From: Phytomonas francai
Taxonomy: Eukaryota; Euglenozoa; Kinetoplastea; Trypanosomatida; Trypanosomatidae
Assembly (NCBI GenBank): GCA_001766655.1
Contig: MJCC01000002.1
Coordinates: forward strand, 777,050-841,049
Length of the DNA stretch: 64,000 nt
Direction of reading: 5' to 3'
Translations under genes and position numbers: made by a program
Shown here: one piece after another, positions 3 to 36,219 of the stretch
Layout: each line of letters opens with the position of its first letter
Position numbering within the stretch: the stretch's first letter is position 1
Notes under the pieces: model-generated
What the model saw: the letters and a program-made list of their open reading frames with translations, nothing else
Told to the model about the DNA's origin: nothing
Database searches by the model: none

Positions 3-3000
3 AGCCTTTTCACTGCGCGGGCTGAGACTGTCTTGCGGGTCGCACGCATCAGCCCCCTCCACTTCGATGCCATCATCCCTAAAGAGGTTCTTGACGCCTT
101 TAAGAACTTCATGGTTGTTCATCCAATGTATAGGTTTCTAAGAAAGGTAGCCCCGAGGAAAGTACGAAGTGAGATGAATTTAATTGGACTTAATCAGACT
201 ATAGAAGAAGGTAAAAATTGCCAAAGTAGCTCGAAAACGGCAAGCACCCTATCTAGCATTCGATGGTTTGATGGCCAGGACGACAAGAAGAGCAATGCTG
301 CTTCTCGTCATCGCAAAAACACGGGAAGGAGTATCTCTAAACTTGCTGCGGTTGAACAGCTCCCACATTTTCGTAAGATGTCTTCCTTTGGGAAGCTGAG
401 CCAGATTAAGGATAAACCACCGTCTCGGAACAAGCCTATGATGAACACCGCAACGACAATCTCACATCAGTCGCACATCCAAACGAGTGAAAATGACAAA
501 AGCGGCAAAGTTAATACTATTTCCGGCAATACTCCACATGCACACCGATTTTCGAATACCAAGCACTCATCCATAGGATCCTCTCTTTGGCACCAGATCA
601 GCCCCGACGGTGAAATTGTTTTCTTGGGTGGTCGAAATCTGTACCGCTTCCCACTCGAGGCGCTCTGTGCGAACAATACCATAATTATTGAAATAATTAT
701 GGACGGTACCATCATCCAATGGAATCCCATTGCTCAGCACGTGATCGGCTACGTGCCATATGAGGTGATCGGGCAGAATATTTTTGATCTCATGAACTGC
801 GAAGAGAGCCGGAAAAAGCTGCGAACAATGCTGAAGGCTGGAAAGGAATACGCGGGAAAGTGGGAGTCGTATGTGTCCGCGGAGCTAAATTCGCAGAAGA
901 TATTTTCCTTTCGACAAAATACAGGGCTGTACCAGATCGATGTTGCGTTGAGCGTCATCCCTTCCATATCTTCTTCGTTCTCCGAAGTGTTCCTTTTAGT
1001 GGGCCGTGAATCGAAATACCATGCTGCGGCCAATTACTCTACCGATGTTGTGGCTTGGCTAAACGAGCGGATGCGTCCGCAGCTCGCAAACTTTCAGTAT
1101 TACATCTCGTACATCGAATCTAAGAAGTGGATGGTAACGCCTGATGATGCTATCTTATTGCGAAGACACTTGGATGCCTGTATGGTAACCGTTGAGCACC
1201 TCGCCCGCTTGTCTTTGCTTACCATGGAGACCGTTAGAGATTCTTTGCGGCCGACTCAACTGATTGTTCCGATTAGACATTTTATAAACCACGCCTGTGC
1301 ACTCGTGCGTAACACCAATTGCAATTTGTCTTGCAATGCAGATGATATCACACCCAACGTAAACGTCTTCTTGGATGCCGAAAAGGTTATCCTGTTTCTG
1401 TGCTTGTTGCTAAAAGATGTGATCAACTCCCTGCAGTACGACCCCGAGATGCACGTCGATATTGAGCTTCGGGTTATGATTATCGAACCGGAGAGCACCT
1501 ATTTCGGGCAGCAGCTTAAGCCCGACGCGGCGCAACCATCCCCACGGCAGTCTCCAAGATCGCAGCAGCAAAACCAGGACCAGGCCGATCCGGGCGTAAA
1601 TGGTGCCGGATCGCCCGGAGCAGTGGCAGCGTTGTCTGGCGGCGGCGGCAATTCCCTGCCGGGGGCCCCCTCGAACTCCCCCCAATCCCGCAAGGCCTCC
1701 GCGCCTTCTTCGGTCGACGCCGTCAAATCCTCGCTCGTGTCGGGGCCGCGAAGCACCGTAGGGGATACGAAGGAGAGCAAATCGTCGGCCGCGTACAGTT
1801 CGCTGCCGCCCCAGAGCAGCTCCTCGGCCTATCCACCGCCGAACGCGGAGCAGAGCGAGGGCATCGACCTGCAGCTCTCCTCGCTGCGCCGGATCTGCTT
1901 CGAGCTGCGCGACAACGGCCTGACGATCCCGCTCTTCCACTCGACGCGGGAGGCCGCGGACGGGCCGGAGTCGCCGTCGAAGTCCTTCCTTCCGACGGTG
2001 CTGAGCCCGACGCTTCGGTTCGACCGTCCGGAGGCGCCCCCGACGGCGCCGTACAACAGCCCGGTGGTGGCGGACGGCGCCGCCCCGGCCTTCCCGCGCG
2101 CCGCCCGCCGCGGCGAGGCCCTCCCGCACGTCGAGCGCCTCGTCGCCGCGATGGGCGGCCTCCTGCGCTGCTTCACGCGGCCGGAGGTGGACGGGAACGT
2201 CGTGCGGGTGGAGCTCCCGCTGCTGCCGGTGCCCGGGAGCCGGGAGGCGGGGCCGGGGGCGGCCGCGGGGGCCTCCGGGGCCGAGCGCGGGGGCCGCTCG
2301 CTGACCGTCCTCGTCGCCGACACCCACCACGTGCACCGGAACCACCTCTGCCAGATCCTCTGGGCCCGCCAGCACGCCGTCATCCCGCTCGGCTCCTTCG
2401 ACGAGCTCATGCGCGCGATCGCGGGGAACACCGCGGATATCCTCATCATCGACCCGATCCAGCTCGACCTCGGGCTCGAGGACTACGTCGCGCGGCACGG
2501 GCGCGACCCCTTCGGCGACATCCTCGAGCGCACGAGCCGCATGGTGCTCATCGTTGTCGGCATGGACTTCAGCGACTGGCGGGTGCGGCGGCTGCTCGAC
2601 CGGAACTCCGTCATCGAGGTCCCGAAGCTCGGCTCCGCCGCGCTCATCCACATCGCGATCCAGGAGGCGGAGCAGATGGTCGCCGAGATGCGCGACGAGG
2701 AGGACCGCATCGAGCAGCTCCGCGCCAACTTCACGAACGCCGCGGCCGGGCGGCATAAGGTCGGCCGCCTCCTCGGCAAGGGCACCTTCGGCGACGTCTA
2801 CGAGGTCAAGGACACCCTCACGAGCGGGCGCATGGCTATGAAGCGGATGCAGCTCCACGAGGGCACCGTCGTCGACGAGGTCGTGCAGGAGATCCTCGCG
2901 ATGACGTCGCTGCAGCACGAGAACATCGTTCACTACTTTTACTGCGAGAAGGAAAGCGATACCATGCTGCGCTTGTACATGGAGCTCGCGACGGAGGGCT

Positions 3001-3932
3001 CGCTCCGGGATCGCATCCGCGAGAACCCCGGCGTTGGGCTGCCGTTCGAGGAGATTGTCCAGCGGCTCACCGGGATCTGCCGCGGCCTCGCCTACGTCCA
3101 CTCCCAGCACTACGTCCACTGCGATCTGAAAACCGCCAATCTCCTCCTGGGGACCCACGGACGCACCAAGATCGGGGACTTTGGTACCGCCAAGCAGCTG
3201 AAGCCCGGGCAAAAGCTCTATAAATTGCTCGGAACGCCGCAGTATATGGCGCCCGAGGTGCTCATGGCGGACGTTCAGCAGCGTATCGGGTACGATTACA
3301 AAGCGGATGTCTGGTCGGTCGGCTGCATCGCCCTCGAGATGGCAACGGGGCTGCCGCCTTTCTCGCACATTGAGCAGAGCCACGGGATGGGGATTATTAA
3401 ATATCTTTCGGAGCTCACCGATACGCCAGATCTGTCACCGCTCTTTAGCGGGAATCCGCTGATTTACGAGTTTGTGAAGGCGTGCTTGGAGATTAACGCG
3501 GAGCTGCGTCCGACCGCACAGGAGTTGCTGCATTTTGATATTTTGCAGGGCACGGGGACAAGCATCCGGGCGGAGCGCATCATGAGACGTGCGGAGATGC
3601 TCTACAAGCTCAATAAATACGCATCGATACGCGACAAACCCAAAGAGAGATCCAACGATGAGTCCAACAAGAGTGATTCAGAGTCCACGGATGGCACTGA
3701 TGATTATGAGGAGGAGGAAGAGGAGGAGGAGGATGGTGTTGGTGGTGGTGATGGTGGTGGTGGTGATGGCAGAGCTGCTCAATATAGCTATGAAACCAAT
3801 TTCCGAAACTCTGTAAGCTCCTCATCGGCAAGTGAAAGTAGCTTCACATCGACATCATCTTCGCAATCCGCTTTATCGTTGAATTGGTCGATCGAGTCGC
3901 TTCAACCTAGTATATCCTCAAAAACGATGTAA
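3..3932 (+). CDS. PAS / degenerate histidine-kinase-receiver / STE11-like protein kinase, 5' partial
   Basis: This is a signalling Ser/Thr kinase with a multi-domain sensory N-terminus. The frame is open from the window edge and no convincing ATG starts it (first in-frame ATG at 111), so the 5' end is probably missing. Residues below are counted from the TTG at 33. A PAS domain covers about 210-330. A DHp/HATPase-like region covers about 340-475 and resumes around 615-750, split by a low-complexity Pro/Ser/Gly/Gln insert. A receiver-like domain covers about 760-890 (VLVAD, LIIDP). The kinase domain covers about 907-1180, with GKGTFG, the Lys codon at 2841, HCDLK at 3117 and DFG at 3177. The catalytic loop has Cys where RD kinases have Arg. 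The tail is acidic, then Gly-rich, then Ser-rich. The kinase resembles the MAPKKK group. The few residues before 33 resemble the end of a cyclic-nucleotide-binding domain. Codon use becomes very GC-rich between about 1600 and 3200. Confidence 0.85.
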   Translation, partial: SLFTARAETVLRVARISPLHFDAIIPKEVLDAFKNFMVVHPMYRFLRKVAPRKVRSEMNLIGLNQTIEEGKNCQSSSKTASTLSSIRWFDGQDDKKSNAASRHRKNTGRSISKLAAVEQLPHFRKMSSFGKLSQIKDKPPSRNKPMMNTATTISHQSHIQTSENDKSGKVNTISGNTPHAHRFSNTKHSSIGSSLWHQISPDGEIVFLGGRNLYRFPLEALCANNTIIIEIIMDGTIIQWNPIAQHVIGYVPYEVIGQNIFDLMNCEESRKKLRTMLKAGKEYAGKWESYVSAELNSQKIFSFRQNTGLYQIDVALSVIPSISSSFSEVFLLVGRESKYHAAANYSTDVVAWLNERMRPQLANFQYYISYIESKKWMVTPDDAILLRRHLDACMVTVEHLARLSLLTMETVRDSLRPTQLIVPIRHFINHACALVRNTNCNLSCNADDITPNVNVFLDAEKVILFLCLLLKDVINSLQYDPEMHVDIELRVMIIEPESTYFGQQLKPDAAQPSPRQSPRSQQQNQDQADPGVNGAGSPGAVAALSGGGGNSLPGAPSNSPQSRKASAPSSVDAVKSSLVSGPRSTVGDTKESKSSAAYSSLPPQSSSSAYPPPNAEQSEGIDLQLSSLRRICFELRDNGLTIPLFHSTREAADGPESPSKSFLPTVLSPTLRFDRPEAPPTAPYNSPVVADGAAPAFPRAARRGEALPHVERLVAAMGGLLRCFTRPEVDGNVVRVELPLLPVPGSREAGPGAAAGASGAERGGRSLTVLVADTHHVHRNHLCQILWARQHAVIPLGSFDELMRAIAGNTADILIIDPIQLDLGLEDYVARHGRDPFGDILERTSRMVLIVVGMDFSDWRVRRLLDRNSVIEVPKLGSAALIHIAIQEAEQMVAEMRDEEDRIEQLRANFTNAAAGRHKVGRLLGKGTFGDVYEVKDTLTSGRMAMKRMQLHEGTVVDEVVQEILAMTSLQHENIVHYFYCEKESDTMLRLYMELATEGSLRDRIRENPGVGLPFEEIVQRLTGICRGLAYVHSQHYVHCDLKTANLLLGTHGRTKIGDFGTAKQLKPGQKLYKLLGTPQYMAPEVLMADVQQRIGYDYKADVWSVGCIALEMATGLPPFSHIEQSHGMGIIKYLSELTDTPDLSPLFSGNPLIYEFVKACLEINAELRPTAQELLHFDILQGTGTSIRAERIMRRAEMLYKLNKYASIRDKPKERSNDESNKSDSESTDGTDDYEEEEEEEEDGVGGGDGGGGDGRAAQYSYETNFRNSVSSSSASESSFTSTSSSQSALSLNWSIESLQPSISSKTM

Positions 3933-19110: not shown

Positions 19111-22100
19111 ATGCTCTCGGAGGACCCTCGTCTTGACTGGGTCGCGGACCAGATCCAGCGCAACCTGCACGACATCGCCGTCGACTCGATCACGGACCTC
19201 TTCCAGGACGCGGCGGCGGTGGCGATCATCCTGGGCGCCTTCGAGGCCGCGAAGGGCGCGGTGGAGCCGTCCTTCGTCGTGGTCGCGCGGGACGAGGACG
19301 TGGTGGGCGGCGGCGCGTCGTCCGCGGCGTTTTCGACCGGCGAGGGCCCGGCGGGGGCCCGTCGGCTGCGGGTCTCGGCGGGGGCCGTCCGGAGCACCAA
19401 CGTGACCGGCTCCGCCCACCGCCCGCCGGACCGGACGCGCTGCGTGTACTTCGCGCGGGCCGGCGGGGGCCGCATCGCCGCGGCCGACGCCGCCGCCTGG
19501 CGCGTCGACCCCCGCTCGCCCGTCCACGCGGCCTTCGAGGTCTGCTGCGCGCCCGTGCCCTCGCTGCGCTCCTTCCGCGTCTTTTTGAAGGAGGTGCTGC
19601 TGCCGGTCGTGCGGAGCGTGGGGCGGGAGGGCCGGCGCGGCCGCCGCGCCCCNNNNNNNNNNNNNNNNNNNNNNNNNNNNNNNNNNNNNNNNNNNNNNNN
19701 NNNNNNNNNNNNNNNNNNNNNNNNNNNNNNNNNNNNNNNNNNNNNNNNNNNNNNNNNNNNNNNNNNNNNNNNNNNNNNNNNNNNNNNNNNNNNNNNNNNN
19801 NNNNNNNGGGGGGGGGGGGGGGGGGGGGGGGGGGCCGACCGCGAACGGCGGCGTCTCCTGCCGTCAGCTCTACGGCGAGATCGCGAACTGGGTCGCGCGG
19901 CTGGACACGCAGATGTGCGGCTTCATCAAGCAGGTCAGCGCGGAGCGGCGGCTGCCGATGCCGCAGAACCTCGCCGCGCTCGGCACCACCGACGGCGACC
20001 TCAAGGCCGCCCTCGCGGACCCGGAGATGCTGCGCGAGGTCGACCACACCGTCTCGCAGTGGCATGCGGAGATCAGCTACGCGATGGCGCTCGACCCCCA
20101 GAAGACCGGGCCCCTCGGCGAGATCGAGTACTGGCGCGAGAAGTACAGCGCGATCAGCGCGCTCTACGAGCGGATCAACGTCGCCCAGGCGCGGTTCATC
20201 CTGCGGATCGCGACCGAGGCCGAGTGCCCGTCCGCGATGCTCATCACCACCACCCTCCAGCAGTTCTTCCACCAGCACGCGGAGGCGAAGGACAATGTCA
20301 AGTTTCTCGGCACCCTCGACCGCCATTTCCGGACCTTGCAGAACATCGACGCCAAGAACGGCTCGCTCACGCCCATCATCGACACCCTCTCCTCGATGAT
20401 GATGGCCATCCGGATGGTTTGGATTATCTCGCGTTTCTACTCCACCGAGGAGCGCATGGTCGGGCTTCTGGAAAAGGTGGCCAAGCTCATCGCACAGAAG
20501 GTGAGCGAGCACATCGACTTTCGCACGATCCTGCTGCTGCCCATCAACGAGGCGCGCCGCAAGGTAAACGGTGGCCAGCAGTGCTTTTTGAAGTGGAAGG
20601 CCGCGTACACCAACGTGCGCGAGGAGATTAGCACGGCCGAGCGGGAGCAGAATTGGAACTTTGATACGCGCCGGCTCTTTGATACCACGGATTACATGTA
20701 CGATCGGTGCACGGACTTGTTGGATGTTATCGAGACGGTGGAGTACTACACCATGGTCCTCAGTTCCCAGCTCAAGACCGTTCTGACGGACTCCACCGGC
20801 ATTGAGCGGATCCTGAAAGACGTGGAGAAGCTAAAGCGTCCGTTCGAGACCCTCACCTTTGACCCTTTTGAGAAGCGCGCGACGCACAACTGGCAGGTGG
20901 TCTTTTCGACCTTTATCAATATGGTCGCGAATCTCGACCAGGAGGTTTCCTACTTTATCAACAAGATATTTGACGAAGACCTCCGCAGCGCCGAGTCGGC
21001 TCTCGAGCTGCTCTTGTCCTTCGAGACGATCAAAAACCGCCCGCATCGGAGCAGTACGAGCCTGGATATCTCCGCTCTTCTTTCGGAAAAGGCCGACCGC
21101 ATTCTTGCGCAGTACTACTCCGAACTCGAGGACGTTCGGACGATATTTATCGAAAATCGCGACAACCCGCCGCTCACCAAAAACCAACCCCCCGTCGCGG
21201 GCTCCATCCATTGGAGCATGGCCCTCTTCCAGCGCATCAAGAAGCCTATCCTTCGTTTTCAGCAGGAATCGATGCTGGGGACGTCGATGGGGAAGCAGGT
21301 CAAGGCGAAATACGTCGAGGTCGCACGCCAAATGAAGGATTACGCCACCGCACGATTTATTCAGTGGCGCGAGGACATCCAGCACACCAAGACATCCTCC
21401 TTGAAGTGGAATATTCTGCGAAAGGAAATGAACAACACGTACCTGGTGAACTTTGACCCGAAAATTTTCGATATCATCCGCGAGACCAAGTACCTGGATC
21501 TTCTCGGCTTCCAAGTTCCGCAGGAAGCCCTGCACATCACGTTGCAGGACGAAGCCTACCACACCTACGTGGAGTCGCTCAAGACGATGCTGCTGAACCT
21601 GAATTACGAACTGGGGATTATTGAGGGACCGGAATCTGCCATTTTGGTCAAAAACATCGCCGAGCTGAAGGCGGAGCTGGAGCCCGGCTTTCACGACATT
21701 AACTGGACCAGTCTGAGCATCCCGGACTTTGTCGCCAGCTGCAGCAGGGCCATCACCAAATTCCGAAATTTGAGTCGCGAGGTGTCGAAAAGCGCCCAAA
21801 GCATTCAAGTGCAGGTGGTGAACAAGATCGCCTCGACCAAGCTCGTGCCGGCGTATGAGGAGATCCTCCAGGATGGCGGGGAGCTGCCCGAGCTCCAGGC
21901 CCTGCTTGACTTGTTCGAGCAGCGCCGCGTCGTTCAACTCGAGCGCTGCGTTCGCGCCTACCGCATCGCGAAGCCGCTCTTGACGAAGGTCGAAAGCCAG
22001 CTCGTCGGGACGCACACCGGGAAGTGCCCTACGCTGGAGAGCTACTACAGCCATTGGGAGCAGCGCATCTGGCGGGCGCTGCGGACGATGGTGTGCAGGT

Positions 22101-25100
22101 CCCTCGAGGCCTTTGCAAAGCTGGTGGGCTACGCCTCCTCCCGAAATACGAAGCGGCCGCCACTTTTCAAGGTAACTATCTTTCTCACGACCGAGCCGAA
22201 CTACTCGCCGCCGCAGCAGGAGATTACCTCCGCCTTCCACAAGATCCAGTCCGGTATTATCGACTCTACGAAGCTTTTCCAGCGTTGGATGCGCGGGACG
22301 TGCCTGGAGTTCACGCAGGGCGAGATCGTACCCCGCCCGGTCGATGAAGACTACTCGGCGCTCTTTACCTTTCACCAGGATACCTACAATCTGCCCATGG
22401 TGTACAAATTGCAGGCGCTAATCAATAGAACGATCCAAACCCACCTGGCCGCGCTCGCCACGAATATCAAAATGCTCCAGCGCTACCGGTTTGTGTACCT
22501 TGCGGACAAGAAGATCTCCGTCGAGCAGCAGGCCAAGAGCCAGTACCACTGGATCGACTACGACGCCAAGTTCCAGCTCTACTTCAACATGATCAACGAC
22601 TTTGATAGCGAGAACCACATTCAGGACTTCGGCTTCATGCGTTGCGACGAGACGCCCTTTTTCTCGGAGCTGGTCGACCACGTCTACCAGTGGATCTCGA
22701 TGGAGGGCGCGCAGCTGAACGACACCGTGCGGGCGCGCATGATGCGGCAGTACAACCAAATCCTCAAGCTCAACAAGGACCTCAGCCGCGACGTGGACAA
22801 CATCGACGACCTCAAGTTCGTCCTCGAGATGATCCACCGGGCGAAGGCGTCGTCGTTGGAGGTGGAGCAGGAGATCCGGGAGATGGAGTACGTCTACCAC
22901 TCCCTGCTGAGCTTCGGGATCGCGGTCGACAAGGACGAGGTCGCGACGGCGATGGGGCTGCGGAAGCTCTGGCAGTGCACCCTCGCCCACGTCCACCAGA
23001 CCGGGGTCAACTTTGAGGAGCGCAAGGCGCGCTTTCGCGACCTGACCATCAACGACGTCGACAGCTTCCTTCTTGAGGGGGACGCGGCCCTGCAGCGCTT
23101 CATCGCCGCCGGGCCCAACCGCCGCGACCTCGACCTCGCGGAGGGCAACGCCCTCAAGAAGGACTGGCGCGCCCAGGTGGGCGCGCTCCAGCTCCGCCGC
23201 GACGAGCTCACGAAGGCGGAGAAGCTCTTCGACCTCCCCCTCACCACCCACACCTCCCTTCAGATCCTGAACGACGAGCTTTCCAAGGTCGAGGTGGTGT
23301 ACGCGATCTACGAGAAATGGATGGCGGTGCTGCGGCGGTGGAACCGCAGCAACTGGAAGGATATCCTTTTGCAGGATATTGAGGCAACAACGGAGGAGAT
23401 CGCAAAGGAGACCCGAATACTGAGTAAACAATACGGCACCCTCGATGTCTTCTTTCCGATCCAGCAGCTCATTCTCAACTTTCAGAGCTCGCTGCCGTTT
23501 CTCGCGAAACTCAAGAGCCCTGCTCTCAAGTCGCGGCACTGGAAGGAGCTGATGCGGGTCACGGGGCGGCAGTTTAACTACGAGCAGATGAGCCTCAATG
23601 ACCTCATCGCCATGGAGCTCTTCCGCTTTACTGACGAGGTCGACACCATCACGCTGACGGCCGCGCGCGAGCAGAATATCGAGACAGAAATTCGTAACAT
23701 GCGCGAGTTCTGGGCGACCAAGGACTTTATTCTCGCTAAATATGAGCCTCGGAAGGGCCAGGTGCGCTGCAACATCCTGAAAGACCTCAGCACCATCCAA
23801 GACGCAGTTGACGATAATATTCTGAAGATGCAATCGATCGCCAACGTTAAATGGGCCCAGCCGTTTATGGATGATGTTCGAATGTGGGAGAAGAAGTTGT
23901 CGGTGATTAACGAGGTGATCGCGATCTGGGTGGCGGTTCAAAAGAAGTGGCAGTACTTGGAGTCCATTTTCATGGGCAGCGAGGATATCGCCTATCAGTT
24001 GCCCAAGGAGACGGCTAAGTTCAGCGATCTGGATAAGAAGTTTGTGCGCATTATGAACGACACCACAGCGGCGCCCATCGTGATCCAGGTTTGCAACGTC
24101 GCCGGACGCCTTGAGGAGCTTTCCTATATCGAGGAGAAGCTGGAGGAGTGCCAAAAAGAGCTCTCCAACTATCTCGATTCGAAGCGCCACCAGTTTCCGC
24201 GATTTTATTTCATTTCCGACGATGAGCTACTTTCCATTCTCGCCACCAGCAGTGCGAGGGCGGTGCAAGAGCATATGCTAAAGTTATTCGACAACTGCGC
24301 GACGCTGTTGTTTAAAAGTGAATCCGACGAGACCGTCCGCGGTGTGGACTCGCAGGAGGGGGAGAGGCTGGATTTCGCGAACCCTGTGAAAACGGAGGGG
24401 AGGCCTGTCGAAGAGTGGCTGCAGAGCGTTCTCGAGGAGTCACGCTCGACGCTGCACGACATTCTCAAGGCAGGTATCTTTTACAACCCTAAGATGAATC
24501 GTCAAAAGTGGATCGACGAGTATCTTGGAATGGTGACCCTCACCGGTGCCAAGATCTTCTGGACGTTTGAGATCGAAAACGCTTTTGATCTGCTCAAAAA
24601 AGGAAAGAAGAACGCGGTGAAAGAGCTGCTATCCAAGCTAACCGAGCAGTTGTTTGACCTCGTGAGTGAGATCGACAAGGATATCGACAAGCAGTACCGT
24701 AAGAAAATCAACACGTTGATCATCGTCGATGTGCACGGCCGCGATATTGTTCACCGCTTCGTTCGCGACTCTGTTATCGACGCGCGGGAGTTTGATTGGG
24801 AATCCCAGCTGCGATTCTACTGGGAGCGTGAGACTGATACCTGTGTGATTCGTCAATGCACCGGATACTTTAAATATGGCTTCGAATACATGGGCTTAAA
24901 CGGGCGGTTAGTGATCACACCGCTCACCGATCGATGCTTTATGACGCTCACCCAGGCCCTGACCTTTTGCCTTGGAGGTGCCCCTGGCGGTCCTGCGGGG
25001 ACTGGAAAGACGGAATCGGTGAAGGATCTTGCCAAGGCAATGGCGATTCAGTGCGTGGTGTTTAACTGTGGTGAGGGGCTGGATTACAAAGCGATGGGAA

Positions 25101-28100
25101 CCATCTTCTCCGGTCTATCACAGACCGGCTCCTGGGGCTGTTTTGATGAATTCAATCGCATTGAGCTCCCTGTGTTGTCGGTCGTTTCCGAGCAGCTTCG
25201 GTCGATTCAAGCGGCGCTGCGCGCCAAACAGACGGAGTTTCTCTTCGGGGATTCCATCATCAAGCTGGTTCCGACCGTCGGCACCTTTATCACGATGAAT
25301 CCCGGCTACGCCGGGCGTGTGGAGCTGCCCGATAACCTGAAGGCCTTGTTCCGCCCGGTGGTGATGGTGGTTCCGGATATGGAGCTCATCGCGGAGAACA
25401 TGCTCTTTTCGGAGGGCTTCAAGACGGCCCGCGAGCTTGCCAAGAAGATGGTCACCCTCTACGCGCTCGCCAAGGGTCAGTTGTCGAAGCAGCGCCACTA
25501 CGATTGGGGGCTTCGTGCGCTGAAGGCGGTTCTCGTGATGGCCGGACAGCTCAAACGCGGCTCCCCGGAGCTTGAGGAGGAGTCGGTGCTGATGCGCGCG
25601 ATGCGGGATATGAATGCCCCCAAATTCATCGCCGAGGATGAGCCCTTGTTTAAAGGGCTCATTGGGGATCTCTTCCCGGGATTAGACCCAACGCGTGTTC
25701 CTCAGGAGAACTTAGCCAACGCCTCGGCCAAAACGTTGCGCGGGAGGGGCTTTAAGAAGGATGCCAAGCAAATCGACAAGGTCGTGCAGCTCTACGAGAC
25801 GATGCAGACGCGCCATACGTCGATGGTGGTGGGGCCGACGGGGGGCGGAAAGTCCGTCGTAATCGACACGCTCTGCAGGGCGCAGACGGACCTGGGCCTT
25901 CCGACCAAATCGTACGTGATCAACCCCAAGGCCCAGCCGACCTCGCTGCTTTATGGATATATGGACCCCATGACGCGGAATTGGTCCGACGGCATCTTTT
26001 CGAACATCTTCCGAGCCATCAACTGCGCGACCGATACCAAACCCAACGAGAGGCGGTATATTATTTTTGACGGGGATGTGGACGCGAAATGGGTGGAGGA
26101 TATGAACTCCATCATGGATGACAACAAACTCCTGACGCTGCCGAACGGTGAACGTATTCGTCTGCGCCCACAGTGCTCCTTGCTTTTTGAGGTGGGCGAC
26201 CTTCAATACGCGTCGCCCGCGACCGTTTCCCGCGTCGGGATGGTCTTTTTGGATCCTGTGAACCTAAGTTGGCGGCTTTACATGTACTCCTGGAGGATGA
26301 AGCGGCTGCAGGATGAGCAGGAGACCCTGGATGAGTTGACGGAGCAGTTTGTGCAGCCCTTAATTGACTTTGTGCTGAATGGGGTGTGCGGAAACGAGAT
26401 CCTGCCGCCACCGAAGCTTGTGATCCCGACAACCGATCTCAACATGGTCAAGCAGCTCACCACGATGCTGCATACGATGTCGCCCGGGACCACGCCTTTG
26501 GAGCCTCGCGCGCTGCAATGTATTTTTATTCTCGCCTGCCTTTGGAGTTTCGGCGCACTGATTAAAACGCAGGAAGACCGCATCCGCTTCGATGCGTTTC
26601 TCAAAAAGCTTAGCGGGTGGAATCTTCAGGATGTCGGTGAGAATTACCTGAACCGCTTTGTTGGCTCCGGCTCGCTACCCGAGCGAAAGACCCTCTATGA
26701 TTACTTCTTTGATCTTCAGGATGGCCGGTGGAAGCCGTGGAATGTGCTTGTTCAGCCCTTTTCACGTGCACCGAACCAAAAGTTCAGCACCCTCCTTGTA
26801 TCAACGGTCGATACCGAGCGCAATATGTGGTTATTAAACCGAATCGTGCTCAATCGCACGCCGGTGTTGCTAGTTGGTGAGAGCGGAACGGCAAAAACCG
26901 TAACGATTCGCGCCTACCTCTCGAAGCTTAAGCAGAACGCGATGAAGTTAAGCGCGCTCGACGATGATGATGTGCACTTACAGGAAATGCCGCTTGAGAT
27001 GAACTTTAGCTCGCGAACGAGTAGCCTTGATGCGCAGCGTACCATCGAGGATAACGTTGAGAAGCGTATCAACACCGTCCTCGGTCCACCCGCGAAGAAA
27101 CGTTTGGTGGTCTTCATTGATGATATTAACATGCCAAAAACAGACCTCTACGGAACCCAACAGCCTATCGCCTTCCTCAAGCTCCTTATTGAGCATCAAT
27201 CCTGGTATGATCGAAAAGATTTGCTCTTTAAAACGGTGCGTGATACGCAGTTCGTGGCGGCGATGGCGCCGGCCGGGGGCGGACGCAACGCCCTCGACCC
27301 CCGTTTCGTTTCCCTCTTTACCGTCTTCAATATCATCTTCCCAGAGGACGAGTCGATTCACGCCATCTACACCCAAATCCTGCAGGACATCTACAAAAAT
27401 TTATCCCTCACGAACAGTGAGCAGCTCGTTCATACCATCACGAGCGCGACGCTGACGTTTTATCAGAATGTCGTCTCCGCGCTGCCGGCGACCCCAGAAA
27501 AGTTCCATTATATCTTCAACCTTCGCGATCTTTCACGGGTCTACGAAGGGCTCTGCCGCGCGACGCCGGAGAAGTTTGTGGATGTGCGCAGCATCGTGCG
27601 GCTCTGGCGGAACGAACTCACACGCGTTTTTTCGGATCGAATGTCCGACCTGGCGGATAAGCGCTACGTGAGCTCGCTGATCGAGGAGGAAATCAAGCGT
27701 AGCTTCCCAGAGGAGGCCTCGCACGCCATGGAGGACCCGCTGCTTTTTGCCGATTTTGCGGATTTCGTTCCCGACAGCGATGTGGATCGGTTGCACATCT
27801 ATGAAGATCTTGGCCCTGACTACGCCGTGGCCCGCCAACTTGTCGACGCGATTATGGAGGAGATTAACACACCGGTCATGAAAATCGATCTTGTGATGTT
27901 TGACATGGCTCTTGAGCATCTGCTCCGTATTACGCGCGTGTTATCGCTCCCTCAGGGCAATTGCCTTTTGATTGGGGTAGGTGGTAGTGGTAAGCAATCG
28001 CTCACGTCCTTGGGCGCTGCCATTTGCCAGCTAGGCGTTTTTGAAATTTCCCTAACGCGAAGCTACAACGAGGAATCCTTCCGGGAGGATCTGAAGCAGT

Positions 28101-31100
28101 TTTACCTTTCCGTCGGGCTTCATCGGAAGAAGATGGTGTTCTTGTTCATGGATAGCCACGTCAAGGAGGAGGGATTCCTCGAGCTGATCAACAACATGCT
28201 CGCCTCTGGTATGGTGCCGGCTCTCTTCACCGAGGAGGAGAAAGAGCCGCTTTACCGCAGCGTAACGGAGGAGCTCACCAAGAATGGGATGGATCTTTCA
28301 AAAGACAGCAAGTGGAGCGCCTTTGTCGGGCACTGCCGGGATAACCTGCACATTGTGCTCTCCATGAGCCCCTCGGGCGACACCCTTCGCACGCGCTGCC
28401 GGAACTTCCCGAGTTTGATCAACTTCACCACGATCGACTGGTTCGAGAAGTGGCCCGCGCAGGCCTTCCACGCGGTCGGCCGCCGGCTCCTCCTGCCCGA
28501 GAGCCTGCCGGAGGCGACGCTGGACCACATCGTGGAGCACATGGTCTTCGTCCACAACACCGCCGACGCGCTCTCCGCGCGCTATCAAACCGAGCTCAAG
28601 CGCCATAACTACGTGACCCCGAAGAACTTCATGGGCTTCCTCGCGAACTACACGAAGCTGCTCCTCACGAAACGGGAGAGCATGGACGACATCGTGAGCA
28701 AGTTCACCGTCGGGCTCGAGCGGCTGCAGCGCGCGCAGGACGACGTCGAGGTGCTGCAGAAGGAGCTCGCGATCAAGGAGGTGACGCTGCTCGAGAAGCA
28801 GAGCGTGAATGACAAGATGACGCGCGAGATCACGGACCAGAAGTCGCGGAACGAGGCCCGCAAGGCCGAGGCCCTCGCCATGGAGGAGGAGCTCAACGTG
28901 CAGAACGAGGAGATCGAGACGGAGACGGCGGAGGCCCAGATCGTCCTCGACCAGGCGATGCCCGCGCTCGAGGAGGCGATGGAGGCGGTCAAGCACATCA
29001 ACCCGAAGAGCATCACGGAGCTCCGGTCCTTCGCGAAGCCGCCGGTGAACGTGGTGGCGGTGGTGCGGATGGTCTGCGTCGTGAAGGGGGTCGCGTCGAC
29101 CTGGGAGGCGGGCAAGATTATGATGGGGCAGAGCGACTTCATCCGCTCCCTCGTCGACGTCGACGCGCTGACCTCGACGCTCAACCAGGGCAAAATCAAC
29201 GAGGTCAACAAGATCCTCAAGGAGTTCCCGGTCAACTCGAATGACCTCAAGAAGGTCAGCCTCGCGGCCTCCGGACTGATGATCTGGGTGGAGGCGATGA
29301 AGCAGTACTGGAACGTGGCGAAAGAGGTCTTCCCGAAGCAGGAGCGCGTGCGGCAGCTGCAGAAGGCGAAGGAGAACGCGGAGAAGCAGCTGAACCAATG
29401 TCGGAACGAGATCGACATCTTGACAGAGAATTTGCGTAAGCTGGAGCATCGGCTGGAGGCGGGGATGTGCGAGGCGCGGCGGCTGCAGCAGGAAAAGGCG
29501 ATCATGGAGCGTCGGCTCAACGCGGCGCGGAAGCTGATCGATGGCTTCGGCTCCGAGCGAACGCGCTGGACGGAGGAGAAGGTGCTGCTCGGGTCTGCTC
29601 GCCACTGCCTCCTCGGCGATTGCCTCGCCGGGGCGGCCTTCCTATCCTATCTTGGCGCCTTTACGTTTCAATACCGCGAAGAGGCGCTTGAAAACTTGTG
29701 GTTGAAGGATATTCGCGAACGGAATATACCGCTTACGGTGCCCTTTGACATCAACCGTCTTCTCACGGATGAGGTTGCGATCTCACAGTGGGCGAGTGAT
29801 GGCCTGCCGTCGGATGAGCTGTCCATACAGAATGGCATTCTTACCACGCTGAGTACCGATTACACCGGAAAAGGAAAGCGCTCTGGTAAGATCCGTTTTC
29901 CGCTCTGCATTGATCCGCAGATGCAGGCGCTGAAGTGGATTAAGCGACAGCATAAAAGCAATCCGAGATTCGAAACCGCATCCTTTAGCGACTCTGACTT
30001 CCTCAAGCGGCTCGAATTTGCCATACAGTACGGGAATCCTTTTTTGTTTGAAGGAATTGACGAGTTCATCGATCCGATTATCGATTCTGTTCTTGACCCC
30101 AAGTTTACCTATGAATCAGGCCAGCGTTTGATCCGTATTGGGGATAAAGATATCCCGTGGGATAGCAACTTCAAGCTTTACTTGTGCACGAAACTTGCGA
30201 ATCCGAACTACCCCGCGGAGGTTTTTGGCAAGACGATGGTGATTAACTACGGGGTCACCGAAAGGGGTCTGGAATCGCAGCTTCTGAACTACGTCGTGGC
30301 GAGCGAGCGGAGTGACTTACAGCGGCAAAGTGAGGAACTCGTGCAGACGATGGCGGAGAGTCGCTCGCAGCTCAAGGAGCTGGAGGATACGCTTATTCGC
30401 GAGCTAACCCTGGCGACCGGGAATATTCTCGATAATGATGATCTGATTTCTACACTGGAGAACACGAAGCGCAGTGCGTTGGAGGTTGGGCAAAAACTCG
30501 AGCAAGCGAAGGAAACGGCGCAAACGACGGAGCTTTCCAGGCAGCAGTACCGACCTGCCGCCCAGCGTGGCACTGTTTTGTATTTCGTAATCAGCCAGCT
30601 CTCTTCAATTAACCCGATGTACGAGTATTCGCTATCAACCTTCCTGCACAATGTGTTTGGCTACTCTATCACGAAAAGCGACCCGGCCTTCGAGATCAAG
30701 GACCGTCTGCAGAATATTATCAAGGCCCTCACCTACAACCTTTACAACTACGTCTGCATGGGCATCTTTGAGAAGGATAAGCTTATGCTTTCCTTCCAGA
30801 TCGCGATTCGTTTGCTATCACAGCAAGGGCGGATGTCAATGTCGGAACTCGAATTCTTTCTACGTGGCTGCATTCTCCCCTCGAAAGATTTCCCGCCGAA
30901 CGTGGCGGACTGGCTAACGGAGCGTCAATGGCACGATATTTGCAAGCTTTCGTCGATCTGCGAGGCCTTTGCGAGTCTACCCGAGGATGTCAAGAACAAT
31001 ATCGATGTATGGAAGGAGTGGATGTTGATTGACCGCCCTGAGGATGCCGAGAATGCGCTCCCTTGCGGGTACTCCGAGCGGATTACCGAGTTTCAGATGC

Positions 31101-33076
31101 TGTGCCTCCTTCGATGCTTCCGCAGCGACCGCGTCTACAACGCGGTGTCAAACTTCATCTCGAACTGTGATTTGCTCGGCCCTGACTTTGTCGTCCCGCC
31201 GATTTTGCGCTATAAAGAGGTCCTGGATAAGAGCTCGTGTCTTTCGCCGATTGTGTGCGTGGTTTCGCCCGGGGCAAACCCGATGGGGGAGATTTTGGAG
31301 CTCGCGGAGAAGGAGGTCGGGCTCGACAAGCTCCGCTCCGTCTCGCTTGGGCAAGGGCAGGGTGAGGAGGCGATGAAGCTTGTCGAGGTCGGTGCCATTC
31401 GCGGACATTGGGTGATCCTTCAAAATTGCCACCTTCTGACCGATTGGATGAAGTCCCTGGAAACGATGACGGAGAAGATGGATCAACAACAAGTCCACGA
31501 GCAGTTCAGGCTGTGGTTGACGACAGAGCCAACGCCTGAGTTCCCATTGGGGATTTTGCAGCGCTCACTGAAAGTGGTGAACGAGCCGCCGAATGGTCTA
31601 AAGATGAATATGAAAACGACCCTATCGAAGGTGAGTGAGGAGCAGTTAGATGTTTGCCCCCATTGGGCCTTCCGCCCTCTGGTCTTTACCCTCACCTTCT
31701 TCCACGCCGTCCTGCAGGAGCGCCGGAAGTATGGCAAGATCGGTTGGAATGTTTCGTACGACTTCAACGAAACGGATTTTACCGTTTCGATGCGGCTGCT
31801 CGACACCTATTTAACGAAGGCGTACCATAACGACGACCCCATCCCGTGGGACACCCTACGCTACCTGGTGGGGGAGGCCATCTACGGCGGCCGCGTCACG
31901 GACAGCATGGACCGCCGGATCGTGCAGACCTACCTCGAGGAGTACTTCGGCGACTTCCTCTTCGACACCTTCACCCCCTTCCACTTCTTCGCGAGCGACT
32001 CCGTCGACTACGCGCTGCCGCCCGGGGGCGCGAACCCGCGGGGGAAGCTCACGCTGGCGGCGATGGTGGCCCACCTGGACGGCTTCGCGAACACGAACAC
32101 GCCCGACGTCTTTGGGCTGCACCTGAACGCGGAGACGGGCTACCTGCGGAGCGCGGCGGAGCGGATGTGGGCCAGCCTCGTCGAGCTCACCCCGCGCACC
32201 GGCGCGACCGCCTTCCGGCAGGCCTCCCACGAGACCACGCTGCAGCGCCTGACCGAGGACATCCTCGCGCGGGTGCCGGCGCCCCTCGACGCGCGGCGGC
32301 TCGCGCGGGCCGAGCGGGAGCGCGCGGGCGCGGCCGGCGTCCCGCCCACGCAGGTCGTCCTCCTGCAGGAGGTCGAGCGATGGGACGGGCTCGTGCGCGC
32401 GATGGTGGCCGGGCTCCGCGAGCTCCAGCGCGCGCTCGCCGGGCTCGCCGGCATGAGCGGCGACCTCGACGCCCTCGCGTCGGCCCTGCAGAACGGCCAG
32501 CTGCCCGACCCCTGGCGCCGCCACGCGCCGGCGACGCGGAAGAACCTCGGGCAGTGGCTCGCGCACTTCCGCCGGCGGTACGAGCAGTACGCGGCCTGGG
32601 CCGAGTCCGGCGAGCCGCGATGCCTCTGGCTCGCCGGCCTCGCCGTCCCGGAGTCCTACCTCGCGGCGCTCGTGCAGGTGACCTGCCGGAAGTACCGCTG
32701 GCCGCTCGACCGCTCGAGCATCGTGACCAGGGTCACCGCCTTCTGGACCGCCGAGGAGGTCCTCGAGTACCCGGACGACGGGGTCTACGTCAACGGGCTC
32801 TTCCTCGAGGGCGCCCGATGGGACCCCGAGACGAACGAGCTCGCGCCGCAAATGAAGAAGCAGCTGCTCGCGAGAATGCCGGTGATCCAGCTCATCCCGA
32901 TGGAGTCCTCCCGGGTGAAGAACCTCGGGACCTTCCGGACCCCGGTCTACGTCACCTCGGACCGGCGAAACGCCGCCGGGGTCGGGATGGTCTTTCAGGT
33001 AGACCTCCCCACACGTGAGCATGCCTCCATCTGGATCTTAGAGTCCGTCGCTCTGATCTTGGACTCGGATGAATAA
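19111..33076 (+). CDS. Axonemal dynein heavy chain (inner-arm type suggested), interrupted by assembly gap
   Basis: This flagellar motor subunit has about 4600 residues. The start MLSEDPRLDWVADQIQRN is typical of axonemal heavy chains. The tail runs to about nt 24800. AAA1 has Walker A GPAGTGKTES (about 24990) with FNCGEGLDYKAMG and GCFDEFNRI. AAA2 has GPTGGGKS (about 25833), AAA3 has GESGTAKT (about 26877) and AAA4 has GVGGSGKQS (about 27976). The coiled-coil stalk and microtubule-binding domain span about 28650-29580, followed by LLGDCLAGAAFLSYLG of AAA5, AAA6 and a C-terminal domain to the stop. AAA1 keeps catalytic motifs. CVVFNCGEGLDYK and the early EIEYWREK resemble I1-beta/DNAH10-class inner-arm chains, but subtype is only a guess. 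Ns at 19653-19807 plus 27 Gs break the gene, and the frame changes across them, so the gap length is wrong. Several GC-saturated islands alternate with normal codon use. Confidence 0.93.
19653..19834. other. Assembly gap (155 N) plus G27 run inside dynein gene
   Basis: Ns fill 19653-19807 and are followed by 27 consecutive Gs (19808-19834). The dynein reading frame is position mod 3 = 1 before and 2 after, so the true sequence must differ in length by 2 modulo 3. The G-run may be a read artefact or a real polyglycine/G-rich tract. Confidence 0.9.
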
Positions 33077-34899
33077 CCCTTGACAAAAATTCATAAATGG
33101 GTGTCAATCTGTGTGTTTGTGTGTGTGTCGGGAGAGAGGGAGGGGGGGAAGGCGAATAGCTGGATTGCACAGTGTATATATTTACACGCATGCATGCTGG
33201 TAATTGTTCATATTATTATTTTATTTCACCCCCAAGAATGGGGGAAAAAGTGAGAGCCCCTTTTAGAATGTAAATTTATGATGTATATTGTTTAACGCTG
33301 TGTTGATCTGACTCCCAGATTTTTCATATCGATGTATTAAAACGGTGTGATCTTAGATTTCATGAAAGAGTCCATTTCCTTTTTTTGGTTGATTTTTGAT
33401 CTCTAGTAATTCCTTGGTTTACCTGATTATAATTTTTTTTTTGGCGGGGGCTAATACCATTTCTGACATATTGTTAGGCCTTTACGTCTGCATTCTCTTC
33501 TCTACCCTGCTATTCTTCTTAATGGCGAAGCTACGCCCTAGTATTTAAACTAATGCATATACCGAAGCAATGATCTTACAACAAAAACTCTTTCCGTAGG
33601 TCGTGATTTGCGCGTAGATCCACTTAGAATACTGGCTCCCTATCAACAAAGGAATACCCTAATCTGTGGACGCTGGTGCTTTTTATTTAGATCGAAATGT
33701 AGCATTTATCCAGATAGTTAGACACTATTATTGCGCATAATCACGGTCGTTGTTAATCCTTTTCCCGGAACTCTTTCTTCTCTCCAACATCACGGTTCCA
33801 CTTTTGAGCATTGAACTTGTATATTTTTGAACAATGACGTTGCAAACTCTAATGCCATGGATCCAAAGCGTTGAAGTAAAGACGCAGCTTGGTTAACCAC
33901 TTACAACGTGCTACCAAAAGCGTTTCCCGATTGAATACTCTGATGTATTCCAACACAAAGGCAACTATGAAGTTCACAATTATAAACGCTGGGCTTATTT
34001 TATATCGGAGGGTCTCTGATTTGGTCCGGCATCCTGATTATAGTATCTTGTCCGTAGGGATGGGGTTTAATAGCTCTCTTAGGAAGAGAAATAAAGTACC
34101 TACGCGGTTACTTTTTTGTTTGTTCATTTTTTGGGAGTTGAGACCCAGAGTACTACCTAAGACAGTTAGGACAGGCGTAGAACTCATCAGTGACATCTGA
34201 AACCACAATTTTCATTAGGTGCTTTACGCCGTGGTATTCTATGAACCCGTACAGATGAGTAGCACTACCTAGAAGGGGTAGCTACTTTCAACAATATCAC
34301 AATATGCACTTTGTCAAGAATGATACTATAAAATGTATTTGAATCTATTAATTCTTTGTAGTTAATGAAATGAATCTACGTATTTACTTACACTCCATTT
34401 TTGTGTTTTGTGCATAAAGATGTGCCAACAAAGATATATAGATATGTGTATATCTATTTATCATTAATGCTTATTTCACAAACCAAGAACATCATGCTAG
34501 CAAACATGACCATGGATTTATAAATTAAAGGAGTATCCCTGTTCGCATGCTTCTGCGGTATTTTCATTCGATTTAATTATTGTAGCGATTTCTTTTTCCT
34601 TTTAGGAATTTGAATTCTGAAGTCTTGTCGGGTTGCTTCATCAGTGCCTCCCATAACAACTTCCTTTCAAATCTCTCCTTTTTTAAATAAAGAAGCTTGC
34701 ACCATATTCATACGATCCTTGAGTATATATTGCATACATATATACCGAAATTAAAGGCTCACCTTTTAGTGCAAAGTCACTTCATATTGTACTTTTAGGA
34801 AATTACCAAGTTGTTTCAAAAATAATAGAAGCACTGATACATACACATATATATATATATATTTATTTATTTATTTATTTATGTAGCCATAGACCAGCC
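33077..34899. other. Long intergenic spacer, no gene recognised
   Basis: Just after the dynein stop there is a GT repeat (33111-33129) and a G-rich tract (about 33130-33148). Between about 33480 and 34240 base composition is more balanced than in other spacers, yet every frame is broken or lacks a recognisable domain. An ORF at 33889-34200 starts with TTG and matches nothing I know. The distal part is AT-rich and ends in an AT repeat and TTTA repeats before the next gene. Possible contents are a decayed gene or non-coding RNA; neither is shown. Confidence 0.45.
34847..34882. repeat. AT and TTTA tandem repeats with downstream AG
   Basis: About seven AT units pass into five TTTA units, followed by TGTAG at 34886. 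The AG could be the splice acceptor, 13 bases before the ATG at 34900. Confidence 0.7.
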
Positions 34900-36219
34900 A
34901 TGTCTATTGCCAATTATAGCTCGCTTTTTCGTCGTATTGATCGACAACCAATTAGTTCGCTTGAGCCGTTCTTAGCCATCCCGCTCAAGCCGATGGTGCT
35001 TTGGGATATGAACCACTTCAAGGATCCAGGGGAGTTCTTCACGCAGAGTGTGGAGCAGCTTGTCGCGCGCACCGCACGCTGCTACGAGGCCTTTTCCTAC
35101 CCCGCCATGTCGAGTAGCCTCCGTTTGCATAATGCGGAACGCTTGAAATGGGCTCAACGGACGAGCCTACGGGAGTTTAAGCAGTGCTTAGCGTTGCGGG
35201 AATTAGTTAAGGAGTATGTCTCGACTGGCCAGCATCTGAAGGCGGACTGCTTTGCGTCTAGAAAGGACGGCGCCCCTTCCCCCTCCGATGGTGTGGCGCG
35301 TGAGGCTCCGGACAGCCTCCCAGGGATCTTGGATCGCGTGGATGATCGCCTCGACGGCGCCGACGAACCCCCTTTCCTCTCTCCGTCTTATGACTTCGAC
35401 GGGGATGATACCCTAGCCGCCTTCGAGGAGCACTCGGCGCCCTTCCCGAAGCTGCTCGCGGCGTCGCCCCTCTCGGCGCCCCACGCGCTCGACCCCGCGG
35501 CGCTCTCCTTCGAGCTCGCGCTGGAGCTGTTGCGGCCGAAAGGGTCGATCCTGGACGTGGTCTTCAACGAGGCCTCGATCCGGTCGGCGCGGCTGAACGA
35601 CTGGTTCTACTACTACTGCCGGCATCGCGTGGCCTGGCGGGTGCTGCACGAGCACCTCCTCCACCTCGCCCGCCCCGGCCGCCACCCCCGCGTCGTCCAC
35701 GACGCCGTCGGGCTGCCGGAGCTGCTGCGCACCGTCGCCGCCGTCGTCGCCGGCCTCGCGCGCGGCGTCGTCGTGCGGGTCGAGGACGACCCCGGGCTCC
35801 TCGCCCGCCCCCCCGCGCCGGGCCTCCGGGCCGTCCGCGACCACCTCTTCTACGTCCTGCGCGAGCTCCTCAAGAACGCGTGCGCGGCGACGCTGCGGGC
35901 GCGGGCCGCCGACGCGATCGTCGTGCGCTTCGCCGTGGGCCCGCGCCACGGCGTCGTCGAGGTGGCCGACCGCGCGGGCGGCATCCCGCCAGGGCTGACG
36001 GCGCACATTTGGCGCTTCGGATGGACGACGCACCGCTACCGCGCCGGCGGGCTCGGCGGCCTCGGCGTCGGCCTCCCCATCTCGAAGGTCTTCATGGACA
36101 TGTGGGACGGCGCCATCGACGTCTACTCGGTCTGGGGCGAGGGCACCACCGTCCGCGTGCGATTCCCTAAGGCCCCGACCGAGGTCCTCGCCTCGAACGC
36201 GACGCTGCGGCCGGACTGA
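34900..36219 (+). CDS. Mitochondrial PDK/BCKDK-family protein kinase
   Basis: The product has 439 residues and belongs to the pyruvate/branched-chain dehydrogenase kinase family, GHKL-fold enzymes that phosphorylate E1alpha in the mitochondrial matrix. The helical domain carries the family block LNDWFYYYCRHRVAWRVLHEH (nt about 35596). The ATP-binding domain has the N-box RELLKNA (about 35860), G1 box DRAGGIPPG (about 35968; usually D-x-GGG) and G2 box GGLGVGLPISK (about 36055), then a closing GTTVRVRFP strand. All nucleotide-binding boxes look intact. The N-terminus is basic and hydroxylated, compatible with mitochondrial import, but no cleavage site can be given. Residues 110-170 are a family-unlike acidic insert. 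GC3 rises sharply after about nt 35430 and stays near saturation to the stop. Confidence 0.85.
   Translation: MSIANYSSLFRRIDRQPISSLEPFLAIPLKPMVLWDMNHFKDPGEFFTQSVEQLVARTARCYEAFSYPAMSSSLRLHNAERLKWAQRTSLREFKQCLALRELVKEYVSTGQHLKADCFASRKDGAPSPSDGVAREAPDSLPGILDRVDDRLDGADEPPFLSPSYDFDGDDTLAAFEEHSAPFPKLLAASPLSAPHALDPAALSFELALELLRPKGSILDVVFNEASIRSARLNDWFYYYCRHRVAWRVLHEHLLHLARPGRHPRVVHDAVGLPELLRTVAAVVAGLARGVVVRVEDDPGLLARPPAPGLRAVRDHLFYVLRELLKNACAATLRARAADAIVVRFAVGPRHGVVEVADRAGGIPPGLTAHIWRFGWTTHRYRAGGLGGLGVGLPISKVFMDMWDGAIDVYSVWGEGTTVRVRFPKAPTEVLASNATLRPD

What the first reader, a model, noticed from the sequence alone, without database searches (positions are those of the whole stretch)
3..3932. Sensor kinase skeleton fused to an STE11-like kinase: PAS, degenerate histidine-kinase core, receiver-like domain, HCD kinase
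Seen: the order PAS, DHp/HATPase-like, receiver-like, then a Ser/Thr kinase in one frame. The DHp motif reads NERMRPQL, with Glu where the phospho-His would be in HExR-P-L. The N-box (FLCLLLKDVINSL) lacks the usual Asn pair. G1 reads DNGLTI (DxG kept, next Gly lost). The tail of the ATPase domain (ERLVAAMGGLL...VELPL) is well kept. The receiver keeps LIIDP, the site of the phospho-Asp, and one acidic residue of the first strand. Inference: a two-component phosphorelay has been turned into a pseudo-histidine-kinase regulatory module for a MAPKKK. Animals lack such proteins, which would make it a lineage-specific signalling system.
Basis: partly seen in the sequence, partly recalled or inferred. 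Interest (0 to 1): 0.8.

Follow-up and report, generated by a model that had tools for sequence, protein, structure and literature searches.

The report
Kinetoplastid kinase with dead histidine-kinase module
This gene, from a plant-infecting relative of Leishmania, encodes a giant protein kinase whose control region is built from a bacterial-style sensor kinase that has lost its own catalytic parts, behind two nucleotide-sensor-like domains; a related protein with the same dead sensor has been described in trypanosomes, so this is a new branch of a known, little-studied design.

Summary
The frame at 3-3932 is the C-terminal third of a 3989-codon gene starting about 8 kb upstream, in a genome I assign to Phytomonas (72% and 78% to Phytomonas sp. 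EM1). Full order: two cyclic-nucleotide-binding-like (CNB) domains, PAS, DHp without phospho-His, ATPase domain without conserved G2 box, receiver, STE-group kinase. Pfam does not find the middle in this copy, but HATPase_c passes in two relatives, a family profile aligns to a bacterial hybrid histidine kinase at 97%, and the AlphaFold2 model has the folds. Two ancient kinetoplastid families exist. Family B keeps a receiver active site; the window's family A keeps phospho-Asp, Lys and one acidic residue (19 of 19) and lost the other acidic residue and the Thr. No HisKA, HisKA_3 or Hpt match in the genome. Prior art: T. brucei DAK (PMC8519429) has the same dead cassette; L. major LmjF15.1200 (PMC1266030) has CNB, PAS and kinase. 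New here: the link between them, and that a family B CNB pair is closest, among solved structures, to the nucleoside-binding trypanosome PKA subunit. Likeliest mechanism: ligand-gated allosteric kinase, not a phosphorelay.

The parts
3..3932 (+). C-terminal 1309 codons and stop of a 3989-codon gene (family A); gene begins about 8 kb before the window
3..152 (+). last part of the second CNB domain (approximate end); its cassette motif GAVELVF lies just before the window
   Evidence: by homology and motif; Pfam itself finds one CNB stretch in this protein and three in EM1 P0127
681..1010 (+). PAS domain (P0001 residues 227-336)
   Evidence: Pfam PAS_9 2.3e-6; model; PDB PAS matches
1011..1241 (+). 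DHp-like two-helix hairpin (337-413), phospho-His absent (NERMRPQL at 1062-1085)
   Evidence: 73 of 77 identical to Phytomonas EM1
1242..2228 (+). ATPase (CA) domain split by two low-complexity inserts (about 1491-1883 and 1929-2111); Asp in place of the second N-box Asn at 1416-1418; DNG of G1 at 1911-1919; C-terminal strand VRVELPL at 2202-2222
2295..2633 (+). receiver domain (765-877): acidic D773 (2319-2321), T774 in place of second acidic residue (2322-2324), phospho-Asp D817 (2451-2453), V852 in place of Thr (2556-2558), Lys K875 (2625-2627)
2637..2738 (+). 34-residue helix running from receiver alpha5 towards the kinase (879-912)
   Evidence: model, residues 665-698; 34 of 38 identical to EM1 over 878-915
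2760..3533 (+). STE-group Ser/Thr kinase domain: Lys 947, HCD 1039-1041 (non-RD), DFG 1059-1061
   Evidence: Pfam 1.9e-57
3534..3929 (+). acidic and Ser-rich low-complexity C-terminal tail

Best explanation
The gene encodes a protein kinase of about 3980 residues under allosteric control. Shown by sequence or model: two CNB-like domains, PAS, a DHp-like hairpin, a CA domain, a receiver and a non-RD kinase with its key residues, in that order; no phospho-His; no conserved G2 box; a receiver missing one acidic residue and the Thr. Inferred: the DHp hairpin holds the protein as a dimer; CNB and PAS ligands change the geometry of the dimer; CA and receiver act as adaptor domains without chemistry of their own; the long alpha5 helix carries the change to the kinase and switches it without activation-loop phosphorylation. 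It is therefore not a phosphorelay. In the sister family B the complete receiver could add a phosphorylation or Mg-dependent input.
For: Folds. Homology. Families: in a kinase-domain tree of 39 rows A (12 rows) 98/99, B (12 rows) 99/98, both together 99/99. Constraint: identity to EM1 is 73 of 77 in DHp, 87 of 113 in the receiver, 34 of 38 in the alpha5 extension, 63 of 83 and 29 of 39 in the two main CA parts, against 70 of 128 in insert 1 and 38 of 65 in insert 2. Kinase Lys 19 of 19 A and 24 of 24 B rows; HxD and DFG Asp 18 of 19 and 23 of 24, the missing rows being gaps; the middle residue of HxD is Arg in only 3 of the 41 rows that have it. No HisKA, HisKA_3 or Hpt match in the genome.
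Against: No biochemistry. Placement of the domains in the models is not reliable (pTM 0.46 and 0.51; Foldseek TM-scores of whole-model matches are low, 0.16/0.27 for the best). Dimerisation is assumed from the DHp fold. CA and receiver of family A fall below Pfam detection in 6 of 6 proteins scanned, and the family A receiver profile alone gives only 1.4% to the bacterial protein. ATP binding by CA is not excluded: the G1 DxG is kept in 16 of 19 A rows. Phospho-Asp and Lys kept in 19 of 19 A rows may mean a remaining chemical role. That no membrane segment is present was judged by eye only.
Confidence: 0.6

Rival explanations
1. Receiver-gated kinase: the receiver is still phosphorylated, by a donor other than a histidine kinase (a small-molecule phosphodonor or an unknown kinase), and this gates the Ser/Thr kinase, much as the receiver protein Ssk1 gates the MAPKKK Ssk2 in yeast.
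For: Phospho-Asp 19 of 19 A and 24 of 24 B rows, Lys 19 and 23; B also keeps first acidic 24, second acidic 21 and Thr 24 of 24. In yeast phosphorylation of Ssk1 represses the HOG pathway (PMC4377207, abstract); Ssk1 activates Ssk2 (PMC3573049, abstract start in the listing).
Against: Family A lacks the second acidic residue and the Thr in 19 of 19 rows; no HisKA, HisKA_3 or Hpt in the genome.
Confidence: 0.2
2. A still active hybrid histidine kinase.
For: Colinear with a bacterial hybrid kinase; 6 of 24 B rows keep the full DxGxG of G1 and 7 of 24 the second N-box Asn.
Against: No conserved His in DHp helix 1; a His beside the conserved Trp is found in 3 of 24 B rows only, Bodo P0023 and the unnamed P0025 and P0026. 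No conserved G2 box: a loose GxGxG pattern between N-box and receiver occurs in 1 of 19 A rows (P0134) and 1 of 24 B rows (P0020), place not checked.
Confidence: 0.04
3. Decayed remnant: the middle region is only a spacer under weak selection and the kinase is regulated through other regions.
For: Low identity between A and B in DHp and the first CA part (8 to 18%, alignment uncertain); large inserts.
Against: Within family A the DHp, receiver and alpha5 helix are clearly better conserved than the inserts; the frame stays open for 3989 codons.
Confidence: 0.13

Closest known systems
DAK, dual ancestor kinase, T. brucei Tb927.9.3120 (PMC8519429)
   Same: PAS, DHp, catalytic and receiver regions followed by a eukaryotic kinase domain; conserved His mutated, receiver Asp present; orthologues in T. 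cruzi, L. major and Bodo (passages). A probable DAK orthologue lies in this genome (P0160, L018; assigned by architecture).
   Different: DAK is a shorter transmembrane protein (kinase domain at aa 737-980) seen at the ER when tagged; the term 'cyclic nucleotide' does not occur in its paper. The window protein is about 3980 aa with two CNB domains and a large low-complexity N-terminus.
L. major LmjF15.1200 (PMC1266030)
   Same: Very large STE kinase with two cNMP-type domains and PAS, without T. brucei orthologue (passages); same architecture as families A and B.
   Different: Histidine-kinase or receiver parts are not mentioned in the passages that I saw. No call settles which of the two L. 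major proteins (P0018 family B, P0134 family A) it is; family B is likelier from chromosome lengths that I recall.
Trypanosome PKA regulatory subunit (PMC10959531; PDB 6FTF, 6FLO)
   Same: The CNB pair of the C14 family B protein matches it best in the PDB (1e-38, 3.8e-36; mammalian RI-beta 4.9e-27); GExE cassettes.
   Different: There the CNBs regulate a separate PKA subunit. The window's CNBs are nearly as close to PKG (1.5e-12) as to it (2e-11), and family A mostly lacks the capping aromatic.
Bacterial hybrid histidine kinases (ShkA, PDB 6qrj; protein P0002)
   Same: Domain order and folds.
   Different: No phospho-His, no conserved G2 box; a Ser/Thr kinase as output.
Sln1-Ypd1-Ssk1-Ssk2 of yeast
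   Same: Works alike only in that a receiver controls an STE-type MAPKKK.
   Different: Separate proteins and an active phosphorelay; no homology of the whole is claimed.

Membership tests
Hybrid histidine kinase | DHp with phosphorylatable His | tested here: not met
   no conserved His in helix 1 in 19 A and 24 B rows; 3 B rows have a His beside the conserved Trp
Hybrid histidine kinase | CA domain with N, G1 and G2 boxes | tested here: not met
   fold present; G1 DxG in 16 of 19 A rows; second N-box Asn replaced by Asp or Glu in 19 of 19; no conserved G2
Hybrid histidine kinase | receiver with acidic pair, Asp, Thr/Ser, Lys | tested here: not met
   family A: Asp 19, Lys 19, one acidic 19, second acidic 0, Thr 0 of 19. 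Family B: 24, 23, 24, 21, 24 of 24
DAK-type kinases (dead hybrid cassette plus eukaryotic kinase) | PAS, DHp, CA, receiver, Ser/Thr kinase in this order, His lost, receiver Asp kept | tested here: met
DAK-type kinases (dead hybrid cassette plus eukaryotic kinase) | common ancestry of the kinase domain with DAK | tested here: inconclusive
   A, B, two DAK-like rows and one long-branch kinase together at 94/98, not starred, with a long-branch warning
DAK-type kinases (dead hybrid cassette plus eukaryotic kinase) | transmembrane segments | not tested
   no predictor run; none noticed by eye in the full frame
STE11 / MAPKKK | kinase domain closest to STE11 | tested here: inconclusive
   best PDB matches are STE20-type STK24; MAP3K2 is lower in the list
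STE11 / MAPKKK | phosphorylates a MAPKK | not testable with these tools
   needs biochemistry
Nucleoside-binding CNB (kinetoplastid PKAR type) | GExE cassettes, no Arg at the phosphate position, aromatic cap | tested here: inconclusive
   second Glu: B 21 of 22 (site A) and 22 of 22 (site B), A 16 and 17 of 18; no Arg in the aligned column of site A, but the alignment there is off by a residue from PKA; cap Y/F in 19 of 22 B and 1 of 18 A rows. Window: GEVE and GAVE

The most novel reading that the evidence does not exclude
Kinetoplastids own a family of purine-nucleoside-sensing STE kinases of triple ancestry: a CNB pair related to the nucleoside-binding PKA regulatory subunit, a dead bacterial-type hybrid histidine kinase as transmitter, and a eukaryotic kinase as output. 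In family B the complete receiver is still charged by a donor other than a histidine kinase; family A, in the window, has dropped the second acidic residue and the Thr and runs on allostery alone.
Probability: 0.25. Interest if true: 0.75.

Novelty: new variant of a known kind. Interest (0 to 1): 0.5.

Why it matters
Trypanosomatids have few or no receptor kinases and many STE kinases (PMC1266030, passages), and what feeds signals into these is largely unknown. A conserved kinase family whose control region is a dead sensor kinase, plus a CNB pair related to a known nucleoside sensor, gives concrete ligands to test. Deletion of L. mexicana LmxM.15.1200 was reported to impair establishment of infection in the sand fly (PMC7618733, passage; the review calls it unique to Leishmania, which the relatives found here would contradict if it is the family B gene). 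It also shows graded decay of a two-component module into a regulator, with bodonid, Trypanosoma and Leishmania states side by side.

Tried and rejected
Pfam and NCBIfam on the window protein alone found no HisKA, HATPase_c or Response_reg (one search lists histidine-kinase models only through PAS). The first protein search, with residues 200-900 of P0001, gave one bacterial hit through PAS, because relatives of the full gene exceed the length limit for a 1309-residue query; searches with the C14 paralogue and with a longer piece found the families. Assigning the organism by 18S RNA failed (not completed); protein identity to Phytomonas sp. EM1 was used. Active histidine kinase and simple pseudogene were considered and rejected (see rivals). 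Response_reg in the whole genome: only the C14 paralogue, E 0.0247, under the cut-off. HisKA_2 and other HK subfamilies were not searched; genome searches score only the best candidates. The bacterial source of the cassette was not traced.

Rows dropped. One search listed 33 hits; 22 of them (P0127-P0148) are of the family A kind and 18 of these were aligned (P0136, P0137, P0141, P0143, all Leishmania, left out). One search listed 120 of 130 hits; of the first 25 (P0006-P0030) 24 were aligned (P0014 left out), and P0030 was not counted. The tree took 12 of 19 A and 12 of 24 B rows. In one search the window's own row was missing because BLAST found no hit; its motifs were read from the sequence; P0014, P0017, P0020 and P0030 were not in that set. 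P0148 and P0029 are gene models with a gap at the kinase core. A rerun of the profile comparison with other settings gave 96.6%, E 6.5e-10, over CA and receiver only.

Papers. Passages: PMC1266030, PMC8519429, PMC7618733, PMC7902614 (nothing on LmxM.15.1200 in the passages shown), PMC10959531, PMC10354285. Abstract and outline: PMC4377207. Others only as search listings, among them PMC3019232 (oomycete kinome), which was not read. That no paper links families A and B to DAK rests on searches in the held open-access library only.
Full report
What was checked. The frame at window 3-3932 is open for 1309 codons. It is the C-terminal third of a longer frame: with the overlapping upstream sequence of the same contig it has 3989 codons (contig 769012-780981, first Met at codon 9). 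The long frames that I took for genes in the window all lie on the plus strand, and the genome has 17.4 Mb in 37 contigs. The nearest proteins are from Phytomonas sp. EM1: 72% for the C14 paralogue, 78% for the window protein. I therefore call the host a Phytomonas; the 18S search did not complete.

Domains by sequence. Pfam sees only PAS (2.3e-6) and kinase (1.9e-57) in the window part and one CNB stretch upstream (7.3e-12); EM1's orthologue has three CNB stretches, and the second CNB here, cut by the window edge, rests on homology and motif. The C14 paralogue P0005 has CNB, PAS and kinase and a full-length but sub-threshold Response_reg match (E 0.19 for the whole protein, 0.11 for its C-terminal part). 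HATPase_c passes in T. cruzi P0021 and Bodo P0023 and in none of the other nine family A and B proteins that I scanned; the precomputed Pfam list shows it in five rows, P0021-P0025. The family B profile from DHp to receiver aligns to a bacterial PAS-HisKA-HATPase-receiver protein with 97.4% probability, E 3.4e-11, against 0.7% for shuffled letters; receiver alone 73.7% (shuffled 0.0), CA alone 85.8% (shuffled 1.6), family A receiver alone 1.4% (shuffled 0.0).

Families. A kinase-domain tree of 39 rows puts family A (12 rows) at 98/99, family B (12 rows) at 99/98, and both together at 99/99. Two DAK-like rows and one long-branch kinase of this genome (L005, the gene in L019) join them at 94/98, not starred, with a long-branch warning. 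Family A is found in Phytomonas, Leptomonas, Lotmaria, Leishmania, Porcisia, T. cruzi, T. vivax and unnamed rows; family B also in Novymonas, T. conorhini, T. rangeli and Bodo. No T. brucei row is named in the (shortened) names of either list; PMC1266030 states that LmjF15.1200 has no T. brucei orthologue.

What is lost and kept (19 A rows, 24 B rows). Receiver phospho-Asp 19 and 24; Lys 19 and 23; first acidic residue 19 (D) and 24 (E); second acidic residue 0 and 21; Thr 0 and 24. Second N-box Asn 0 and 7, with Asp or Glu in all 19 A rows. The full G1 motif DxGxG is in 6 of 24 B rows (P0021-P0026) and lost in the Leishmania rows; DxG alone is in 16 of 19 A rows (one further pattern hit, P0145, lies elsewhere). 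No conserved G2 box: a loose pattern occurs in P0134 and P0020 only. The DHp His is not conserved; three B rows (P0023, P0025, P0026) have a His beside the conserved Trp. The kinase residues checked (Gly of the loop, Lys, HxD, DFG) are present in every row with sequence there, and the kinase is non-RD in all of those rows but three of family A.

Sensors. The C14 protein's CNB pair hits the T. cruzi PKA regulatory subunit at 1e-38, the T. brucei one at 3.8e-36, and mammalian RI-beta at 4.9e-27. In that subunit a Glu in place of Ala202 and the loss of Arg209 go with binding of purine nucleosides in place of cAMP (PMC10959531, passages). Here the Glu is present in 21 of 22 (site A) and 22 of 22 (site B) B rows and in 16 and 17 of 18 A rows; the capping aromatic of site A in 19 of 22 B rows but 1 of 18 A rows, and not in the C14 protein itself (Asp). 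The window's CNB region is nearly as close to PKG (1.5e-12) as to trypanosome PKA (2e-11). Nucleoside binding is a fair guess for family B in general and a weak one for both Phytomonas proteins.

No partner. HisKA, HisKA_3 and Hpt give no match at E<=1 in the genome, while found in 12, 7 and 8 of 14 control genomes. The five HATPase_c matches read, by eye, as two topoisomerase II-like, two MutL-like and one PDHK-like frame.

Known work. DAK of T. brucei carries sensor, DHp, catalytic and receiver regions before a eukaryotic kinase; its authors note the lost His and the kept Asp, propose a bacterial origin, and report ER location of the tagged protein and no knock-down phenotype (passages). A probable DAK orthologue lies in this genome (P0160, 1024 aa; PAS and kinase by Pfam; hydrophobic segments by eye). 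LmjF15.1200 was described in 2005 with two cNMP domains and PAS, and deletion of LmxM.15.1200 was reported to impair sand fly infection. I found no paper that joins these, within searches.

Judgement. Observation confirmed with corrected borders. The likeliest mechanism is ligand-gated allostery through a dead histidine-kinase scaffold (0.6). It is a new variant of the DAK kind, not a new category.

Noticed in passing
L018:248-3322 (contig C32 1317747-1320821): Probable DAK orthologue of this genome, 1024 aa: hydrophobic segments (by eye), PAS, a degenerate histidine-kinase-like stretch with VDVVICDSEW, and a kinase with HRD.
   Followed up: partly
L019:1379-4840, minus strand (contig C11): 1153-aa frame with a hydrophobic stretch, no PAS match, a receiver-like stretch by eye whose phospho-Asp position reads His, and a kinase (Pfam 6.4e-57); joins the DAK-like rows in the tree on a long branch.
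   Followed up: partly
window 34723-36219: 498-aa frame with HATPase_c (1.4e-14) near its C-terminus, PDHK-like by eye; no other Pfam family at E<=0.001.
   Followed up: no
window 19589-33076: 4495-codon dynein heavy chain-like frame (by eye) with a run of masked bases near its start.
   Followed up: no
window 50001-52000: AT-rich stretch, GC 0.32 against 0.42 and 0.53 in the neighbouring 2-kb steps; no frame of 150 codons or more between 49193 and 51744.
   Followed up: no
L027 (contig C35, near 72503-73387): PKA regulatory subunit-like frame with GELE in both cassettes, 37% identical to the Bodo family B CNB pair.
   Followed up: partly
P0030 (ENA, unnamed): 1328-aa DAK-like protein with hydrophobic N-terminal segments (by eye), PAS and kinase; Arg stands at the phospho-Asp column of the receiver alignment.
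   Followed up: partly
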